DNA of 64,000 nucleotides from Haloarcula sp. CBA1127. GTDB lineage: Archaea > Halobacteriota > Halobacteria > Halobacteriales > Haloarculaceae. The notes below the pieces were generated by a model that did no database searches, was not told where the DNA came from, and saw only the letters and a list, made by a program, of their open reading frames with translations. This document shows, piece by piece, positions 2,578-54,581 of this stretch. Within the stretch, counting starts at the first letter, position 1, and the number at the start of each line of letters is the position of its first letter. The DNA lies in the NCBI RefSeq assembly GCF_001485575.1, contig NZ_BCNB01000006.1, positions 682,001 to 746,000 on the forward strand, read 5' to 3'. The position numbers and the translations under genes are program-made.

Positions 2578-3087
2578 TCAGAGCTGGGCTTCGATGTCGT
2601 CGTAGTCCGGGAAGTCAGGCCACTCCTGGGCCACCCACGCGTACTCGATGGTCCGGTCGCTATCGAGGACGAACACCGACGGACGCGGCTCCTCGATACC
2701 GGCCATTCCGTCGAGGTCCATGTCGATGCTGTACTGCTGTGCGACGCCGTTGGCGGGGTCCGAGAACAGCCGGTAGTCTCCCTCTATTTCTCGCTCTCTG
2801 AGCAACTGCTTGTGTTCGTACGGCGTCGAGATTGAAACGCCCACGACGGTGGCCTGCTCGTGCCACGCGCGGTCGCGAATCTCGTTCCAGATGTACGTCG
2901 CCGGGAACGCGCCGTCCATCGCGTGGAACACGAGGACGACACGGTCGCTGTCGGCACAGACCGACGCGAGCGATTCGTCCTCCCAGAACTCGTCGTTGAC
3001 GAGCGGGCGGGTGAAATCCGGCGCAGTGTCGCCTTCTTCGGGGTGCTCGACCGGGTCGAGATCGACGATATCGAAGTCGAGGTCCAT
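2578..3087 (-). CDS. Redoxin-fold protein lacking the peroxidatic cysteine
   Basis: The protein has 169 residues with an AhpC/TSA-like (peroxiredoxin) fold: a lead-in GDTAPDFTRPLVN, then VVLVFHAMDGAFPATYIWNE, then VVGVSISTPYEHKQLL. In true peroxiredoxins the stretch after the second strand has a Txx(V)C active site. Here the position reads AMDGAFPA and there is no cysteine. The only cysteine seen is earlier, in SVCADSD. It overlaps the stop codon of the upstream glutaredoxin-like gene and is probably co-expressed with it. It may be a non-catalytic partner or chaperone, or use another residue. That the fold is redoxin-like is clear; activity is not. Confidence 0.7.
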   Translation of the reverse strand: MDLDFDIVDLDPVEHPEEGDTAPDFTRPLVNDEFWEDESLASVCADSDRVVLVFHAMDGAFPATYIWNEIRDRAWHEQATVVGVSISTPYEHKQLLREREIEGDYRLFSDPANGVAQQYSIDMDLDGMAGIEEPRPSVFVLDSDRTIEYAWVAQEWPDFPDYDDIEAQL

Positions 3088-3365
3088 CAGGCCACACCCC
3101 CCGCGGTCTCCTCGCCCTCGCCGTAGGTCCGTTCCAGATACGCGACGATGTTCGCGCTCTCGGACATCGTGACGCCGGTGTTCTCGTCGACGATGGCCGG
3201 GACGGTCCGCTTGCCGGACAGTCGCTTGACTACATCGCGGTCGGCGTGCATCGGCTCGACGAACCGCGACTGGTAATCGAGGTCGTAGGCGTCCAGCTTC
3301 CGGACGACGCGCTCACAGAACGGACACGCCTGCAACCGGTACAGCGTGATATCGGACTCGCTCAT
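3087..3365 (-). CDS. Glutaredoxin-like / GST N-terminal domain protein
   Basis: The protein has 92 residues starting at MSESDITLYRLQACPFCERV. I chose the ATG at 3365 because an upstream extension adds unconserved basic sequence. It is a thioredoxin fold with a CPFC active site near residues 13-16 and the cis-proline segment KRTVPAIVD. The C-terminus ESANIVAYLERTY is typical of GST N-terminal domains and glutaredoxins. It probably reduces disulfides using gamma-glutamylcysteine or thioredoxin-type donors, since haloarchaea lack glutathione; that is inference. It is the first gene of the operon with the redoxin and TsaC genes, and it diverges from the CorC gene. Confidence 0.8.
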   Translation of the reverse strand: MSESDITLYRLQACPFCERVVRKLDAYDLDYQSRFVEPMHADRDVVKRLSGKRTVPAIVDENTGVTMSESANIVAYLERTYGEGEETAGGVA

Positions 3366-47328: not shown

Positions 47329-48520
47329 CTATCGTCGCCGACCGCCGTGCCCGGGGTAATCACGCTCGAACCTGTCTTCGAGTTCTTGCCGGTCAATGTG
47401 AATGACCGTCGGTCGCCCGTGGGGACACGCGTAGGGGTTCTCACACTCATCCAGCGCGGCAAGTAGCTCCCTGACTGAGCCCTCAGTGAGCGACGTGTTC
47501 CCGGTCACGGAGGGGTAACACGCCAAGTCGCCGAGCAGTTCGTCGGCTGCTGCCTCCACCGTCGCCGCCGCTTCGTCGTCGCCGGCGACGAACGCACCGA
47601 GTACGTCCCTGACGATGTCCGGCCCGGCCGCATCGGCGATGACGCCCGGAAGGGTCCGGACCTCGACGCTTCGCTCACCTGTGCGTGCCGTGTGGAACCC
47701 CAGACTCGCCAGCGCGTCGCTGCGCCGGTCGAACACCTCAGCTTCGCGGGCGGTCAGTTCAAGTTCGACAGGGTTAGCAAGTGCCTGTGTCGTCGTTTCG
47801 CCTTCGAACTTAGCCTTGAGCCGTTCGTAGTTGACCCGCTCGTCGGCTGCGTGCTGGTCGACCAGCACGAGGCCGTCGTCCGTCTCCGCGACGACGTAGG
47901 TGTCGGCTAATTGACCAAGAATCCGCATCGAGGGCAGCGATTCGTGGGTCGCCTCCGGGTCGTCGCCGAGACGTGCCTGCTCCTGTCCGCCAGTGAACTT
48001 CCGTTCCCCGCGCTCTGTCTCTGTCCGGCCCGCCGCGGACGCGTCGGGGCGTTCACCGTCGCTATCTCCACCCGAAACGCTACCCCTTGTCTGTCGCGCC
48101 TCGGATTCGCCCGGCGCGTCGTCTTTCGCCTCGGCCGGGGAGGCCCGTTTCGTGTCGACTGATTGCTCTGATGGGGTCGTGTCAGTGGACCGGTGACCCG
48201 TTGTCTCGGTCTGGGAACCACTAGGTCGTTCTGTGGGATCAGTATCTGATTCCTGTACTGTCGTATCAGCACTGCTCTCCGCTGTTGTGCCGTTCGTCCG
48301 CGCTGACGCTTCTGTTTCGTCCGTGGTGTCTCGGCCGTCCGGATGCGACGGCTGCCGCTCGCTGTCGCTCGCTCCGTCCGCTTCCGGCGTTATTTCGGTT
48401 TGCTCGGGTGCTGACCGGCCACGCGGTGCTGTCGAGCGTAGTAGCCCCTCATGCAACAGCGCGTCCTCGACTGCAGTCCGGACCTGCTCGCGGACGCCCT
48501 CGTCGTCGGCAAAGCGGACC
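47329..48520 (-). pseudogene. Displaced 3' half of the original mutL (C-terminal endonuclease part)
   Basis: About 397 codons that align with the linker and C-terminal domain of MutL, beginning at LEVR and ending after DYPGHGGRRR. It starts abruptly at the left edge of the integrated element. The endonuclease motif DQHA-AD-E-RVNY-E and the CPHGRP metal site are both intact. The open frame runs about 43 codons further upstream through element DNA to 48651, so it could be translated only if a new start is used. The N-terminal ATPase part is missing. I interpret it as the host's native mutL 3' end left behind by the insertion. Confidence 0.85.
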
Positions 48521-48522
48521 TC
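48518..48522. other. Left edge of the element (attL-like site in mutL)
   Basis: ACCTC here sits where element DNA meets the displaced mutL 3' half. The minus-strand sequence GAAGCTAGAGGTCCGC aligns loosely with GAAAATGGAGGTGAGA at the other edge. The shared core is short and partly degenerate, so the exact crossover point within it is uncertain. Confidence 0.5.
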
Positions 48523-48720
48523 TAGCTTCGTCTTAAAGACGAGATTCGTCACCAATTCAGAATTAGCGGGAAACCGGGTAAGAAGAGACGAAGATAGGAT
48601 TAATTCGAACAGATATTGATGGCAGAGTACTCGAAGAAGAGAAGAGATCAAGCGTCCAGTTTGGCCAAGAAAACAGACCGGTGGATTCTAACGTTCTGCC
48701 GTTGGAACAGTCCTGAAATA

Positions 48721-48742
48721 CCTTTACAAGTACCTGTAAAGG
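48721..48742. promoter_or_regulatory. Inverted repeat CCTTTACA-6-TGTAAAGG ahead of the integrase locus
   Basis: Perfect 8-bp arms with a 6-base spacer, starting 53 bp before the ATG of the winged-helix gene. The position and symmetry suit the operator of the first gene of the integrase operon. It could also be an arm-type site for integrase or an excision factor. Confidence 0.55.
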
Positions 48743-48773
48743 TTATGTACGAGGTCCATGAAAACCTAATGTA

Positions 48774-49031
48774 ATGGACATAGAACACCGCCCCATGCCA
48801 GGTGCCAACCGGGACGACAACTCCGGGAAATATACAGAGACGTACCCGTCTGACGCTTTTATCTCTGCACTGGAAGCAGAAGGTGGGTCAGCGGGGACAC
48901 AGCCTATAGCGGACCGCGTTGGGTGTTCCTACGAAACGGCCTACAAGAAGCTGCGCTCACTGGCTGACGACGGCAGGATCGGCCAGCAGAAGGTCGGGAA
49001 CGCGAACCTGTGGGAGATTGATAATGAGTAG
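48774..49031 (+). CDS. Winged-helix DNA-binding protein of the integrative element
   Basis: The protein has 85 residues. After a flexible start there is an ArsR/MarR-type HTH: DAFISALEAEGGSAGTQPIA, then CSYETAYKKLRSLADDGRI and the wing QQKVGNANLWEID. It probably represses or switches the integrase operon, or acts as the excision factor. It overlaps the next gene by 8 bp. An inverted repeat 30-53 bp upstream may be its binding site. Confidence 0.75.
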   Translation: MDIEHRPMPGANRDDNSGKYTETYPSDAFISALEAEGGSAGTQPIADRVGCSYETAYKKLRSLADDGRIGQQKVGNANLWEIDNE

Positions 49032-49479
49032 CGAAAGCCATCTAACTCCGACGTATCCCACAGAGGAACAGTACGAGCGGTGGGAGCAAGAAGCAGATGA
49101 ACTGGGGATGTCGATGTCAGAGTTCGTCGAGTGCATGGTGGAAGCAGGGATGAAGAAATTCGAAACCAGTGTCACGCCAGATGAAACGAACCAAGAACTC
49201 CGGAAACAGCGCAATGACCTAAAGGAGGAATTAGAACACGCCCGGAATCGAATAGACCGACTTGAAAACGAACTTCATCACGGCGAGCGAGGAGCAATCC
49301 ACGACTTCGTTAGAAGGAATCCGGGGGCTACATACAATGAAATCGTTCAGCACGTTATCGACACTGCTGCCGGACGCGTTACTTCCTGTCTGGAGGGTCT
49401 AGAAGGTGAAGGCTTACAAGTGAAAACGGACGAAGACGGTACTGACCTGTACTACCCGGCCAACGGGGGGAGCGAATAG
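49024..49479 (+). CDS. Ribbon-helix-helix/coiled-coil/winged-helix protein of the integrase locus
   Basis: The protein has 151 residues. The N-terminus (YPTEEQYERWEQEADELGMSMSEFVEC) resembles a ribbon-helix-helix segment. A coiled coil follows at about 58-92 (LRKQRNDLKEELEHARNRID), and the C-terminus looks like a winged helix (NPGATYNEIVQHVIDTAAG). The ATG at 49024 overlaps the end of the previous gene, and its stop codon overlaps the next GTG. Small proteins like this accompany SNJ2-type pleolipovirus integrases, as I recall, and assist recombination. Confidence 0.7.
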   Translation: MSSESHLTPTYPTEEQYERWEQEADELGMSMSEFVECMVEAGMKKFETSVTPDETNQELRKQRNDLKEELEHARNRIDRLENELHHGERGAIHDFVRRNPGATYNEIVQHVIDTAAGRVTSCLEGLEGEGLQVKTDEDGTDLYYPANGGSE

Positions 49480-50066
49480 TGGCTCGGGGAGAGCACGACA
49501 CGCCCGGACGACCGTCAGGGGTCGAAATGCGGGCGAACCAGAACCCAAAGGCTCGGATGGGCGTTTTCAAGTCAATCGACGACGTTCCTGACCGCTATCG
49601 CTTGTCGAATTACGCCGAAGAGTTCCGGGGTAACGATACGTGGTCGTGGTATCTCATGCTCCGCTTCGACGGGACCGTTAATCAGGCACAGGGAAAGCTG
49701 GGGAAGTGCCGTGCGGGTGAACTCGAAAGATGTGGTCGATACTTCAAGACGTTCATGCACCGGAAGCGGGACAAGCATCACGCCTTGGCCACACCCGACG
49801 ATATCGAATCTTTCCTCTCCGAAATCAAGGACGGATACAAGAATCCGACCAAGCAACCACGGGCGACTTCGACTGTCTACGACACGTACTTTGCGCCAGT
49901 TAATCGGTTCTACGACTGGCTCCAATCGTGGGTTGACTTTCCCCATCGTCATCAGCCGGTGCTAATGGCGTGTGCCAAGGGTGGTGTCGCCCGCGAGTGC
50001 TGGGACTATCGGATGGGCTTAGCCGACAAGCAATTCGACAAAAAGCACGGTGATACAGATGAGTAG
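49479..50066 (+). CDS. Recombinase-like protein without catalytic domain
   Basis: The protein has 195 residues (GTG at 49479; the internal ATG at 49527 is another option). The part from about residue 45 matches the N-terminal core-binding (SAM-like) domain of tyrosine recombinases: YFKTFMHRKRDKHHALATPDDIESFL, then STVYDTYFAPVNRFYDWL. No catalytic Arg-His-Arg-Tyr domain follows; the chain ends where it should begin. It overlaps the integrase gene by 8 bp. It may assist or modulate the integrase by occupying the same DNA sites, which is inference. Confidence 0.65.
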   Translation: MARGEHDTPGRPSGVEMRANQNPKARMGVFKSIDDVPDRYRLSNYAEEFRGNDTWSWYLMLRFDGTVNQAQGKLGKCRAGELERCGRYFKTFMHRKRDKHHALATPDDIESFLSEIKDGYKNPTKQPRATSTVYDTYFAPVNRFYDWLQSWVDFPHRHQPVLMACAKGGVARECWDYRMGLADKQFDKKHGDTDE

Positions 50067-51177
50067 CGATAACCACGACAAACACAAACAGATTGCTGAC
50101 CGCTTCGGTCGTACAACTGACCCGTTAGCCGAGTACAACGAGGGTTTCTGGGCCATGGAGACGGAAGATGGCGTTGACCCATTCCAGCTATTCCTCGATG
50201 AATACGTGAGAAACCGCGACCACTCCGACGATTATATCAAAAACCGGGAGCGGCACGTCCGGCAATTCCGGGACTTCATGACGGAACATTACGACCGGCA
50301 TCCCGCGTGCGCGTCGTCTCGACACGCGATGGAGTGGGCGAAGGCGTTTCTCAACGACGGCCTTAGCAAAAGGACCGTTGCGAAGAAGCTGTCCACGCTA
50401 CAGCTTGCCTACACCTACTTCGGGAACGAACCGAACTTCCCGCACAAGACGGACTTCAACCCCTTCGGGTCAGCTAAAGGTAAAATCGACCTCAGCAAAG
50501 AGTCACCAAAAGACCCGTATCCTATCCCACTCCCGGAACTTCGAGACGTGATTCGGGATGACATTCGTCACATCCGAGACCGCGCACTCATCGTTACCGG
50601 GTTCAAGACACTCCTCCGTGCGTCAGAAGTCTGTAACATCAGGCTCAGCGAGGTTCACATTGCCAACTCTGAGCTACAGAACCACTATCCAGAATTGGGT
50701 ACACACCCGGCGCTTGATGGTCGTCCAAACGCGGTCTACGTCCCTCACGACCGGGACCGGAACAAACGGGAACGGCCGACAATCATCCCATTAGATGACG
50801 AATTACGGCGCATCCTTCTTCAATACTTACTGGTGCGGCCTGACAACGACGAGTCGTGGCTGTTCCTGAGTAAGACAAAGGGACGGAAGATGGACCACAC
50901 GAACGTTAACGACCGTTGGAAAGAGTATTTCCGCCCGCGATACGGCCCGACTGACCGATTCCGGGGAGTGTCCTCTCACTACGGCCGTCATTTCGGAACG
51001 ACCTGGTTCAAAGTCGAACAGAACTGGCCCCGCGACCTCGTCAAGTACCTGCGCGGCGATAAGCAAAGTGGTGGGAAAATCCGTTCGACCCGTGACGCTA
51101 TCGACTCCTATATTCACACCTACTACGAGGACATCGAAGACCGCTATCGAGGCGAAGTCTTCAAATTCCGAATCTAA
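50059..51177 (+). CDS. Tyrosine recombinase (integrase) of the mutL element
   Basis: The protein has 372 residues from the ATG at 50059; a GTG at 50050 is also possible. The N-terminal core-binding domain (about 30-140) has DYIKNRERHVRQFRDFM. The catalytic domain has the first Arg in LLRASEVCNIRLSEV, the His-x-x-Arg in SSHYGRHFGTTWF, and the nucleophile Tyr in IDSYIHTYYED near the end. It most likely carries out integration at the mutL site and excision. It overlaps the upstream gene, so all four genes are probably one operon. Confidence 0.9.
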   Translation: MSSDNHDKHKQIADRFGRTTDPLAEYNEGFWAMETEDGVDPFQLFLDEYVRNRDHSDDYIKNRERHVRQFRDFMTEHYDRHPACASSRHAMEWAKAFLNDGLSKRTVAKKLSTLQLAYTYFGNEPNFPHKTDFNPFGSAKGKIDLSKESPKDPYPIPLPELRDVIRDDIRHIRDRALIVTGFKTLLRASEVCNIRLSEVHIANSELQNHYPELGTHPALDGRPNAVYVPHDRDRNKRERPTIIPLDDELRRILLQYLLVRPDNDESWLFLSKTKGRKMDHTNVNDRWKEYFRPRYGPTDRFRGVSSHYGRHFGTTWFKVEQNWPRDLVKYLRGDKQSGGKIRSTRDAIDSYIHTYYEDIEDRYRGEVFKFRI

Positions 51178-51204
51178 CCCGGCTATCGTTCCTATCAGTG
51201 CCCA

Positions 51205-51672
51205 TTATCCGTCGGTCCCATATTCTACCCTGTTGGGGATATTCTGACGCACAGTATCGACTTCGGCCCACATTTCATCTTCAATTTCTTTCAGTTCTGA
51301 CCCACTGCTGCGATTGTCCCGTTCCAATAATAAGGCCGCATACCGGTAACTTGCTGATATCTGCTGAAGTGCCGATACAACGTCTTCGTCAACGTCTAAG
51401 AAGTTCCCCTTTGCAGCGTGTTCCTCAAGCTTCGAAGCCCGATTTCGAAGTACCTGCTCGGAAGGACCTTCAGTAGACCCTTCACTTAGGATTTCGTTCG
51501 ACCAATCCCTTTCAGCCAGTTCAGCTTGGACTCCAGCTTCGACATACCACTTTTCCACATCCCTTTGACGGTCTTCCTCAACCCGCTTATCAACGGTATG
51601 CCGCGCAACAAATAGTGACACTAGGCCGCTTATTCCGATTGTTCCCACGTCAATTGCCCATCCAGGAATCAT
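51205..51672 (-). CDS. Membrane-anchored coiled-coil protein, element cargo
   Basis: The protein has 155 residues. One N-terminal membrane segment (MIPGWAIDVGTIGISGLVSL) is followed by a long charged helical region to the end. I do not recognise a family. The C-terminus has scattered Glu and Arg residues. It sits behind the integrase gene, convergent with it. Because the second cargo gene next to it has the same layout, the two may work together, for example at the membrane. Confidence 0.55.
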   Translation of the reverse strand: MIPGWAIDVGTIGISGLVSLFVARHTVDKRVEEDRQRDVEKWYVEAGVQAELAERDWSNEILSEGSTEGPSEQVLRNRASKLEEHAAKGNFLDVDEDVVSALQQISASYRYAALLLERDNRSSGSELKEIEDEMWAEVDTVRQNIPNRVEYGTDG

Positions 51673-51765
51673 GTTATATCGACAATTCGAAAGCTGTTGT
51701 TTATTATGTTACTACTTCGGAGCATCAAAGACATAGAATCTGGACAAAAATGCACCAGTCTGAAT

Positions 51766-52476
51766 CTAATCTTGTTCAGTGTCCGCTCGATTCGCTTTGT
51801 AGCTATCTTCGATTTCAATGTATTCGTCAGCACTCAGTTCTTTAAGAACCGTCTTCTTGCGCTCGGCTAATTCCTCCGTCAGGTTTTGCAAACGGCTAAT
51901 GTAGTAATCATAGGAAAAGTCTGAATCGTCACTATCTTGTTCAACTTCCTGCTCGGCAGCTTCAACCGCCTTTTCCATCACTCTCTTTACTTGTTCAAGA
52001 ATGCGGTAGAATTGAATCACAGCGTCGATTTGTTCCGGTTCAAGTTCCCCCAGTTTGTCAGCGTTTGAATCATAAACCGGTGTCCCGTAATTGATTTCAT
52101 TAGCCTGCCTACCTGCCTCGGTAAGCGATTTCTTTTTTGTTTGGTCTATTTCGAACGCTTCGCGTATTTGTTCATCAGATACCCGTTCTTCAAGTTCGTC
52201 AGGTATCATCACGTTCTTTACCGTCGATATTACCACTCCCAGGTCATCTTCTCCCGTTTCAAGAAGCTGAGATATGATGTGTATTTGCTTGACTTGAAGA
52301 GAATCAATTTCACTGATTAACGCCCGCCGTATCCGTCTTTGACGTTCACGCGAGTTTCGTTTATCAGACCGATATATTGCAAAGTACGATATGAATCCTC
52401 CAAGCAAGGCCGAAAGAAAGGTCGATATTGGAAGGTTTGATAGCGTAGACCAAACTCCTGAAATGTTGCCGAACAT
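51766..52476 (-). CDS. Membrane-anchored coiled-coil protein downstream of chimeric mutL
   Basis: The protein has 236 residues from the ATG at 52476 (GTG at 52482 is possible). A membrane segment lies near residues 15-35 (LPISTFLSALLGGFISYFAI). The rest is charged and helical with a coiled coil (AVEAAEQEVEQDSDDSDFS; LTEELAERKKTVLKELS). The base composition is more AT-rich than in host genes. It lies 26 bp after the end of the chimeric mutL on the same strand, so it may be expressed from the mutL promoter. No family is recognised. Confidence 0.6.
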   Translation of the reverse strand: MFGNISGVWSTLSNLPISTFLSALLGGFISYFAIYRSDKRNSRERQRRIRRALISEIDSLQVKQIHIISQLLETGEDDLGVVISTVKNVMIPDELEERVSDEQIREAFEIDQTKKKSLTEAGRQANEINYGTPVYDSNADKLGELEPEQIDAVIQFYRILEQVKRVMEKAVEAAEQEVEQDSDDSDFSYDYYISRLQNLTEELAERKKTVLKELSADEYIEIEDSYKANRADTEQD

Positions 52477-52502
52477 TGGCACCCAGTTTTAACCGTCGGA
52501 TG

Positions 52503-54581
52503 TTAATGCCCAGGATAATCCCGTTCGAACCGGTCGCCGATCTCGTCCGAGTCGATATGGATGAGTACCGGTCGACCATGCGGGCACGCCCACGGATTTT
52601 CACACTCGTCAAGGGCCGACAGGAGGTCCACCACGGACCCATCTGTAAGGGATGTGTTACCCGTAATCGAGGGGTAGCAGGCCATATCTGATAATAATTC
52701 GTCGGCAACCGCTTCGACAGTCTGTTTCGCTGCGTCTTCCCCAGTAACGAACTCCAACAACACGTCCCGAATGATCTCGGGGCCAGCGGCATCGGCGATG
52801 ATACCCGGAAGCGTCCGAACTTCCACAATTTCGTCACCCGTCCGCGCGGTGTGGAAACCGAGGCTTGCCAGTGCATCACTCCGGGCCTCAAAAACGGACA
52901 TTTCGCGGGCAGTGAGTTCGATTTCGACCGGGTCCGCTAACGCCTGCGTTGTCGTTTCGCCTTCGAAGCGTTGCTTTAGCCGTTCGTAGTTGATTCTTTC
53001 GTCAGCGGCGTGTTGGTCGATGAGAATTAACCCGTCGTCAAATTCGGCGACAATGTACGTGTCGTGTAGTTGCCCCAAGACTCGAAGGTCTGGGAACGTA
53101 TCGAACCCCGTTGTTTCGTGAGCATCTTCACCGCTCAGCGTCTTCTGGGTGTTCGGTTCGGTTGTAGTGGGAGACCGTTCCCGTTGTTCGTGTGGCGTCG
53201 ATGACGTTGTGGAGTCTGTGGTAGATGACTCCAAGCGGGAGGGTGGCGACGACTCGACAGTCGAATCCGACGACGGCTGAGACGGTGTAGCTGGCGTGTC
53301 TGAGGTATCCGTAGTTGATGTCGGTGAAGACTCAATTCGAGAGGACTCTGTAGAGTCTGACTGTCCCGTATCTCCTCTCTGTGCCGCCTCATCTGTTCTA
53401 TTCACCGTTCCCGTTGTATCGTCAGGCACCTCTGTATCGGCTGTCTCAGCGGCGGAATCAGCAGCGTTTTCAGAGACAGGCGACGGGTCAATCTCCGTCT
53501 GTTCAGGGGCGCTCCGACCGCGTGGAGCGGACGAGCGAAGAAGGCCCTCTTCTTGAAGTGCGTCTTCGACGGCGGTACGAACTTGTCGCTCGACGGCATC
53601 TGATTTAACCCATCTCACCTCCATTTTCCGGGGGTGGACGTTCACGTCCACGTCGCCTGCGGGGACATCCAGAAAGAGGACGGCGAAGGGGTAGCGGTCC
53701 GGCGCGATTTGGGTACCGTAGGCGTCGATAACGGCGTCCCGGACGGTACCGGCCCTGACGTAGCGACCGTTAACGTACGTCGAGAGGTACTCACGGCCGG
53801 CGCGATTCGTCTCGGGGTGGGACACGAGGCCGTGGACGCCGTTAAGCGGTCCATCGGGGAAACTGTCCGTCCCGTCGCCGCTCCCTGTTGCCTCCGAGCC
53901 TGCACTGACCGAAATCATCGACTCGGCGACTTCCCGGCCGTAGACGGACATTACTGTCTCGCGCAAGTCACCCTGGCCGGTCGTCGAGAACGTCTCACGG
54001 TCGCCGTGGGTCAGCGAGACCGCCACGTCCGGGTTAGCCAGCGCGTAGCTGGCGACGACGGTGTTGACATGCGCGAATTCCGTCGACTCCTGCTTGAGGT
54101 ATTTCCGGCGGGCTGGGACGTTATAGAAGAGGTCTTCGACCGCCATCGTCGTCCCCTCCGGACAGCCGGCGGGGCCGACTGCCGTGACGTCACCGCCTTC
54201 GAGTACCAGTTCGGTTCCCACGTCGCCGCCGCGGGGTCTGGTCCGTATCGTCAGCCGTGAGACCGCCCCGATCGCGTGCAGCGCCTCGCCGCGGAACCCG
54301 AGCGTTCCCACGCCACCCTCTAGATCTGCAATGTCGCGGATTTTCGACGTGGTGTGTTCCTCGACGGCCGTCTCGACAGCCTCGCGGTCCATCCCGACGC
54401 CGTCGTCCGTGACGCGAATCCCGTCGGTTCCGCCGGCTTCGACGACGACATCGACCCGGCTTGCGTCGGCGTCGATCGCGTTCTCGACCAGTTCCTTGAC
54501 GACGGAGGCCGGTCGCTCGACCACCTCGCCGGCTGCGATGCGTTCGACGGTCTGGTCGTCGAGTCGCTGGATATCGGTCAT
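52503..54581 (-). CDS. mutL: DNA mismatch repair protein MutL (host N-terminal part fused to element-borne C-terminal part)
   Basis: The protein has 692 residues. The N-terminal GHKL ATPase has ENAIDA near residue 33, DDGVGM near 58, TSKI near 78 and GFRGEAL near 93. The acidic linker spans about 340-490. The C-terminal dimerization and endonuclease domain has DQHAADERINYE near residue 522 and ACPHGRP near 664. The 5' part (to about residue 320) uses GC-rich host codons. The remainder uses more A/T-rich codons and differs clearly from the displaced host version at 47329. MutL couples mismatch recognition by MutS to strand incision. The enzyme looks complete and functional. Confidence 0.9.
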   Translation of the reverse strand: MTDIQRLDDQTVERIAAGEVVERPASVVKELVENAIDADASRVDVVVEAGGTDGIRVTDDGVGMDREAVETAVEEHTTSKIRDIADLEGGVGTLGFRGEALHAIGAVSRLTIRTRPRGGDVGTELVLEGGDVTAVGPAGCPEGTTMAVEDLFYNVPARRKYLKQESTEFAHVNTVVASYALANPDVAVSLTHGDRETFSTTGQGDLRETVMSVYGREVAESMISVSAGSEATGSGDGTDSFPDGPLNGVHGLVSHPETNRAGREYLSTYVNGRYVRAGTVRDAVIDAYGTQIAPDRYPFAVLFLDVPAGDVDVNVHPRKMEVRWVKSDAVERQVRTAVEDALQEEGLLRSSAPRGRSAPEQTEIDPSPVSENAADSAAETADTEVPDDTTGTVNRTDEAAQRGDTGQSDSTESSRIESSPTSTTDTSDTPATPSQPSSDSTVESSPPSRLESSTTDSTTSSTPHEQRERSPTTTEPNTQKTLSGEDAHETTGFDTFPDLRVLGQLHDTYIVAEFDDGLILIDQHAADERINYERLKQRFEGETTTQALADPVEIELTAREMSVFEARSDALASLGFHTARTGDEIVEVRTLPGIIADAAGPEIIRDVLLEFVTGEDAAKQTVEAVADELLSDMACYPSITGNTSLTDGSVVDLLSALDECENPWACPHGRPVLIHIDSDEIGDRFERDYPGH
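53617..53621. other. Right edge of the element (attR-like site in mutL)
   Basis: ACCTC here marks the point in mutL where GC-rich host coding sequence changes to the more divergent element copy. On the minus strand it reads GAAAATGGAGGTGAGA. It is the partner of the left edge at 48518. Confidence 0.5.

What the first reader, a model, noticed from the sequence alone, without database searches (positions are those of the whole stretch)
51205..52476. Two membrane-anchored coiled-coil cargo genes placed directly behind chimeric mutL
Both minus-strand genes have one N-terminal membrane segment and charged coiled-coil tails, with no recognised family. The larger starts 26 bp after the mutL stop. 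On integration, the cargo therefore becomes the tail of the host mutL transcription unit and may be driven from its promoter. Such proteins could exclude other elements or serve as a defence or toxin pair. The function is speculation.
Basis: partly seen in the sequence, partly recalled or inferred. Interest (0 to 1): 0.55.

Follow-up and report, generated by a model that had tools for sequence, protein, structure and literature searches.

The report
Membrane-anchored cargo behind captured mutL
A small mobile DNA element in a salt-loving archaeon has replaced the end of the host's DNA-repair gene mutL with its own copy and parked two uncharacterised membrane-protein genes right behind it, where related elements often carry virus-defence genes.

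Summary
c238 (52476-51766, minus) starts exactly 26 bp after the chimeric mutL stop; c155 is 51672-51205. They lie in a ~5.09 kb integrative element (about 48530-53617) that recombined inside mutL at a 12-bp core and supplies MutL residues ~319-692. Both encode a membrane segment followed by Arg/Lys and a predicted cytoplasmic helical bundle rather than an extended coiled coil. Named libraries give no family, but both belong to unnamed, mobile haloarchaeal families; close members show dN/dS 0.07-0.16. An 87%-identical integrase from a metagenome sits 12 bp tail-to-tail with a 92%-identical mutL 3' end and no cargo, so the two genes occupy a cassette slot. In relatives of the integrase the slot held a c238-family gene in 3 of 38 loci (about 0.014 expected) and recognisable defence-type genes (restriction-modification, type IV restriction, Lamassu-like, CRISPR/Cas2) in about 8. 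Best reading: membrane-tethered defence or exclusion cargo, c238 probably transcribed from mutL's promoter and c155 probably from its own. A toxin pair is not supported. Function is inferred by association only; fold searches were uninformative. A conserved three-gene module headed by c238-family proteins is the most promising lead.

The parts
47329..48529 (-). Displaced host 3' part of mutL (remnant; host-like sequence)
   Evidence: Nucleotide identity to same-genus mutL up to 93%; MutL_C E 9.4e-37; GC 0.652
48518..48529 (-). att core, left copy (GAAGCTAGAGGT)
   Evidence: Alignment with same-genus uninterrupted mutL; 3 mismatches to the right copy
48721..48742 (+). Perfect dyad upstream of o85, likely operator
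   Evidence: Only match in the window, 0 expected in 100 shuffles
48774..49031 (+). o85, small HTH regulator
   Evidence: PHROG 18890 transcriptional regulator E 5.5e-15
49024..49479 (+). o151, NikA/RHH-like plus HTH protein, conserved partner of the integrase
   Evidence: NikA-like 1.7e-4, below cutoff; homologues next to int in many relatives
49479..50066 (+). o195, conserved unknown partner of the integrase
   Evidence: Homologues next to int in most relatives; no family
50059..51177 (+). Tyrosine integrase
   Evidence: Phage_integrase E 2e-10; PHROG 1 E 2.2e-23
51205..51672 (-). c155: membrane-anchored four-helix protein with WY and L..HAa.G..L.VD motifs
   Evidence: Family alignment A2; 26 of 293 genomes; model pLDDT 75
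51673..51765 (-). c238-c155 intergenic gap with T5 run and TATA-like stretch
   Evidence: Sequence, GC 0.355; function inferred
51766..52476 (-). c238: membrane-anchored helical protein with LR.AL..E and VY..N...LG.L...E...vI.FY motifs
   Evidence: Family alignments; 79 of 293 genomes; model pLDDT 79
52503..53628 (-). Element-borne 3' part of mutL (about residues 319-692, including the whole MutL_C domain), fused in frame to the host 5' part
   Evidence: Identity drop to same-genus mutL at the core; MutL_C at residues 502-645, E 3.3e-36
53617..53628 (-). att core, right copy (GAAAATGGAGGT)
53629..54581 (-). Host 5' part of mutL (ATPase half)
   Evidence: Up to 92% nucleotide identity to same-genus mutL

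Best explanation
c238 and c155 are accessory cargo of a small tyrosine-integrase element that targets protein-coding genes and restores the target with its own 3' end. They sit in a cassette slot between the integrase and the element-borne target-gene end. Both are membrane-anchored proteins with a cytoplasmic helical bundle, and most likely act in defence against, or exclusion of, viruses and other mobile elements (inferred from association). c238 is most likely read from the host mutL promoter as the tail of the chimeric mutL transcript (inferred from spacing and lack of a terminator); c155 most likely has its own promoter. Shown here: element boundaries, chimeric mutL, exchangeable slot, family membership, purifying selection on relatives. 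Not shown: transcription, protein location, any phenotype.
For: Slot: L021 has the integrase at 87% identity and the mutL 3' end at 92% with about 12 bp between the two stop codons and no cargo. Cargo block GC 0.455 against 0.52-0.56 for o151, o195, int and the element mutL end. Slot use: c238-family genes downstream of int in 3 of 38 loci (L084, L165, L171), all convergent with int as in the window, 0 elsewhere in the 474.5 kb; about 0.014 expected from the genome-wide density. Defence-type genes in the same slot in about 8 of 38 loci: type I RM (L095), C5 methylase (L096), LmuB-like (L085), type IV restriction HNH (L169), PDC-S26/PDDEXK_4 (L180), CRISPR array plus Cas2 (L093), DinG-like (L167), GIY-YIG (L088). 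c155 relatives lie beside PDDEXK_4 (L118), DUF4365 and Hypoth_Ymh (L124), Hypoth_Ymh (L125) and beside the same integration module (L122). L220 has an Mrr-type restriction enzyme, a weak c155-like and a c238-family gene together. dN/dS 0.07-0.16.
Against: No PADLOC, Pfam, NCBIfam or PHROG match for either protein, and no informative fold match. Association is not function: the slots also hold flanking housekeeping genes (nop5, purD, mutY), and I chose which proteins to name. A c238 subfamily of about 150 aa is common in haloarchaeal genomes and could have an ordinary membrane role. In L171 the c238-family gene is not behind the target gene, so the mutL linkage is not general. A weak promoter inside the mutL 3' end cannot be excluded.
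Confidence: 0.5

Rival explanations
1. c238 and c155 serve the element itself: membrane-tethered maintenance, copy control or self-exclusion of sister elements rather than defence of the host.
For: They lie inside the element; a c155 relative lies next to the same integration module (L122) and c238 relatives next to related integrases.
Against: The close relative L021 has no cargo between int and mutL; most relatives of both proteins lie away from this integrase (none of the 20 loci L214-L233 gave a hit of this integrase).
Confidence: 0.2
2. The two genes are passengers whose role is unrelated to mobile elements (for example envelope or stress functions).
For: The wider c238 family occurs in 79 of 293 genomes, some as a short form; no catalytic motif was seen.
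Against: 3 of 38 integrase slots hold the family where about 0.014 are expected; the c155 family is on plasmids and beside restriction-type genes.
Confidence: 0.2
3. Toxin-antitoxin or toxin-immunity pair.
For: Two small adjacent genes on a mobile element, both membrane-anchored.
Against: The families usually occur apart; likely separate transcripts; neither matches a toxin or antitoxin family.
Confidence: 0.05

Closest known systems
Archaeal integrated elements in protein-coding genes (Thaumarchaeota survey, PMC6563490; passages read)
   Same: Integration inside a protein-coding gene with an element-supplied end that restores the reading frame; phosphoribosylamine-glycine ligase, the likely target in L101/L102 here, is a target there too.
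   Different: There the integrations are in 3'-distal regions and the worked example replaces eight nucleotides; here 1126 nt (about 374 codons) of mutL are supplied by the element and cargo follows the target-gene end.
SpyCI islands in mutL of Streptococcus pyogenes (PMC3430984, passages read; PMC4689407, start of abstract in listing)
   Same: A mobile element inserted at mutL that links element and mismatch-repair transcription.
   Different: SpyCI enters the 5' end and blocks mutL transcription; here the reading frame is rebuilt, and it is the cargo that may borrow the mutL promoter.
Integrase-linked defence cargo islands (Pseudomonas defence hotspots, PMC12629846; title and start of abstract only)
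   Same: Exchangeable defence genes on genomic islands.
   Different: Archaeal, about 5 kb, cargo of no named family, slot between integrase and restored target gene.

Membership tests
Tyrosine-integrase integrative element restoring a protein-coding target | Tyrosine integrase | tested here: met
   Phage_integrase E 2e-10, PHROG 1 E 2.2e-23
Tyrosine-integrase integrative element restoring a protein-coding target | Direct-repeat att core at both ends | tested here: met
   12-bp cores with 3 mismatches, placed by alignment with same-genus mutL
Tyrosine-integrase integrative element restoring a protein-coding target | Empty sites in relatives | tested here: met
   Among 32 same-genus genomes G000 alone has a complete mutL plus a second partial copy; one (G384) has no match and one (G397) is split over contigs
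Tyrosine-integrase integrative element restoring a protein-coding target | Excision and integration activity | not testable with these tools
   Needs PCR for attP and the empty site
Anti-phage defence system (any in PADLOC-DB 2.0.0) | Match of c238 or c155 to a model | tested here: not met
   0 families for both
Anti-phage defence system (any in PADLOC-DB 2.0.0) | Location in slots or neighbourhoods with defence genes | tested here: met
   by association only
Anti-phage defence system (any in PADLOC-DB 2.0.0) | Protection against a virus or plasmid | not testable with these tools
   Needs an infection or transformation assay
Toxin-antitoxin pair | Conserved two-gene pairing | tested here: not met
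   No co-occurrence by tblastn in the loci; one weak case, L220
Fold class of c238 | Match to a known helical-bundle sensor domain | tested here: inconclusive
   Chemoreceptor ligand domains at Z 9-11 tie with designed bundles; no Foldseek hit at E<=0.001

The most novel reading that the evidence does not exclude
The c238 family is the membrane component of an undescribed haloarchaeal defence system: in seven loci it heads a conserved operon with two unnamed proteins of about 364 and 375 aa, and in this element a lone version, with c155 as partner, has been wired to the host mismatch-repair promoter so that the defence is expressed only when the element is integrated in mutL.
Probability: 0.15. 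Interest if true: 0.7.

Novelty: new variant of a known kind. Interest (0 to 1): 0.42.

Why it matters
Archaeal defence genes are under-catalogued. The slot between this integrase and its restored target gene gives a simple rule for finding uncharacterised cargo across haloarchaea, and it already points to two unnamed membrane-protein families and a conserved three-gene module. If c238 is read from the mutL promoter, the element links a DNA-repair gene to its own accessory functions in a way opposite to SpyCI, and that can be tested with one RT-PCR.

Tried and rejected
Fold searches gave nothing usable: Foldseek against PDB had no hit at E<=0.001 for either model nor against viral models for c155; VIA-align put c238 among generic four-helix bundles. 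Profile searches of PDB sequences found only designed coiled coils and unrelated chains. c238 and c155 have no relative in viral contigs and c238 none in plasmids. The c155 hits in L115 and L116 are phosphoglycerate-kinase-like proteins (recognised by eye) and were dropped. Alignment A1 had one row, L003, in the wrong frame; it was replaced by A3. The bacterial promoter and terminator scan does not cover archaea and was not used. Self-comparison of 20 fetched loci (18 of them integrase loci) for split target genes showed a duplicated gene next to int in L101; L094 showed paralogous long ORFs and L093 a repeat array; no partial copy of a target gene was recognised in the others within the stretches held. 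The PADLOC comparison of 68 slot genes with 50 window genes (254 families against 3) counts redundant families, not genes, so I do not use it as a statistic. One search used 97 family matches and an assumed 3.6 Mb per genome; the table lists, by my hand count, 96 rows, some of them split pieces. Clustering of mobile genes, which would raise the expected number, was not modelled; the rest of the same loci (about 322 kb beyond the 4-kb slots), with 0 hits, is the only internal control.

Full report
What is there. The two ORFs are at the stated coordinates on the minus strand. c238 (52476-51766) starts 26 bp after the mutL stop, c155 (51672-51205) follows after 93 bp, and c155 ends 27 bp from the end of a convergent integrase gene. 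The named libraries give no family for either.

The element. Same-genus mutL genes (32 genomes searched) show that the window mutL is a fusion: its first 953 nt are up to 92% identical to relatives, identity then drops, and a host-like 3' end (up to 93% identical) lies about 5 kb away at 47329-48529. Alignment places the crossover at GAAAATGGAGGT / GAAGCTAGAGGT. The element, about 48530-53617, therefore supplies residues ~319-692 of MutL, including the whole MutL_C domain. Its other genes are a small HTH regulator with a perfect dyad upstream, two conserved integrase partners (o151, o195) and a tyrosine integrase. Homologues of one or both partners lie beside the integrase in most of the 38 integrase loci examined.

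The slot. In L021 (MAG A07HB70) the integrase is 87% identical and the mutL 3' end 92% identical, with about 12 bp between their stop codons and no cargo. That piece lies between two runs of N in a scaffold, so the join to its neighbours is unreliable, but the int-mutL junction is within one contiguous stretch. The cargo is thus most simply an insertion at the int/mutL junction; its GC (0.455) is lower than that of the other element genes measured.

What relatives carry there. I examined 38 loci with related integrases (39-63% identity by tblastn), 474.5 kb in all. Genes just downstream of int include likely targets (nop5 and purD, by Nop and GARS domains; mutY by eye) and cargo. A profile of the c238 family hits three loci, all downstream of and convergent with int: L171 (22-636 bp from the int end), L084 (2438-2998) and L165 (3226-3831). 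L165 contributed to the profile; L084 and L171 did not. Genome-wide the family gives 96 listed matches in 293 genomes, so about 0.014 are expected in 38 x 4 kb (with an assumed mean genome size). Recognised defence-type genes lie in the slot in about 8 of 38 loci: L085, L088, L093, L095, L096, L167, L169, L180. I picked these from the listing, and some may be chromosomal flank rather than cargo (L093's CRISPR array in particular).

The families. c155: 26 of 293 genomes at E<=0.001, 13 of them with 100 bits or more, on plasmids of Halobacterium hubeiense and Halopenitus persicus and beside PDDEXK_4, DUF4365 and Hypoth_Ymh genes. In L122 it lies next to the same integration module. c238: 79 of 293 genomes. 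In seven of 79 loci examined (L084, L165, L214, L215, L225, L230, L232; four families, six genera by handle) a c238-family protein heads an operon-like row with a ~364-aa and a ~370-380-aa protein, both without a Pfam match at its cutoff or a PADLOC match in the two loci tested. Twenty of those 79 loci had been fetched because they hold the c238 family, so 7 of 79 is not a frequency. In L220 a c238-family gene, a weak c155-profile hit (E 0.002) and an Mrr-type restriction enzyme are neighbours. Close members show dN/dS 0.07-0.11 (c155), 0.16 (c238), 0.05-0.06 (module partners).

Structure. AlphaFold2 models (12 and 15 sequences) give a long N-terminal helix spanning the membrane segment and continuing into an all-helical bundle. 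Fold searches do not single out a relative.

Expression. Haloarchaeal promoters have TTWT and CGAAA-like elements (PMC4983044, passages). The 26 bp between mutL and c238 hold no poly-T and are too short for a complete promoter of their own; a promoter within the mutL 3' end (for example around ATTATCC, about 42 bp before the ATG) cannot be excluded, although the corresponding L021 sequence reads ATTACCC. After c238 there is a T5 run and, about 35 to 28 bp before c155, an ATAATAAA stretch, so c155 may start its own transcript. All this is sequence reading, not measurement.

Verdict. Ordinary in being mobile cargo; interesting for the slot, the two unnamed families and the three-gene module. Literature: searches for mutL/integrase/haloarchaea, integrase/mutY/archaea and haloarchaeal integrative cargo listed no paper that, from its title and abstract start, describes this element; that covers only the held library.

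Noticed in passing
L084:7838-10723, L165:6565-9401, L214:3460-6289, L215:3290-6121, L225:2901-5776, L230:3301-6122, L232:3263-6179: Conserved three-gene module: c238-family membrane protein, ~364-aa protein (34-64% identity between loci), ~375-aa protein (22-54%), no Pfam or PADLOC family in the two loci tested; candidate undescribed defence system.
   Followed up: partly
L093:3467-6627 and 3079-3351: CRISPR array (37-nt repeat) and a cas2 gene directly downstream of a related integrase.
   Followed up: partly
window 48721-48742: Perfect 22-bp dyad upstream of the element's HTH gene o85, probably its operator.
   Followed up: partly
window 47329-48651: The displaced host MutL C-terminal part stays open and in frame into element sequence; it could be expressed as a MutL fragment.
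   Followed up: no
L083, L085, L086, L089, L091, L101, L102, L169, L171: Related integrases sit at other protein-coding genes (mutY, nop5, purD), suggesting a family that specialises in such targets; L101 has a duplicated 5' part of the purD-like gene.
   Followed up: partly
L119, L120, L121: In three c155-family loci the preceding gene looks like an IS200/IS605-type transposase gene (annotated so in L135, the same plasmid region as L121).
   Followed up: no
L021 8592-8612 and 10357-10377: Public MAG scaffold A07HB70 carries the element piece between two N runs inside another gene, so its scaffolding there looks wrong.
   Followed up: partly
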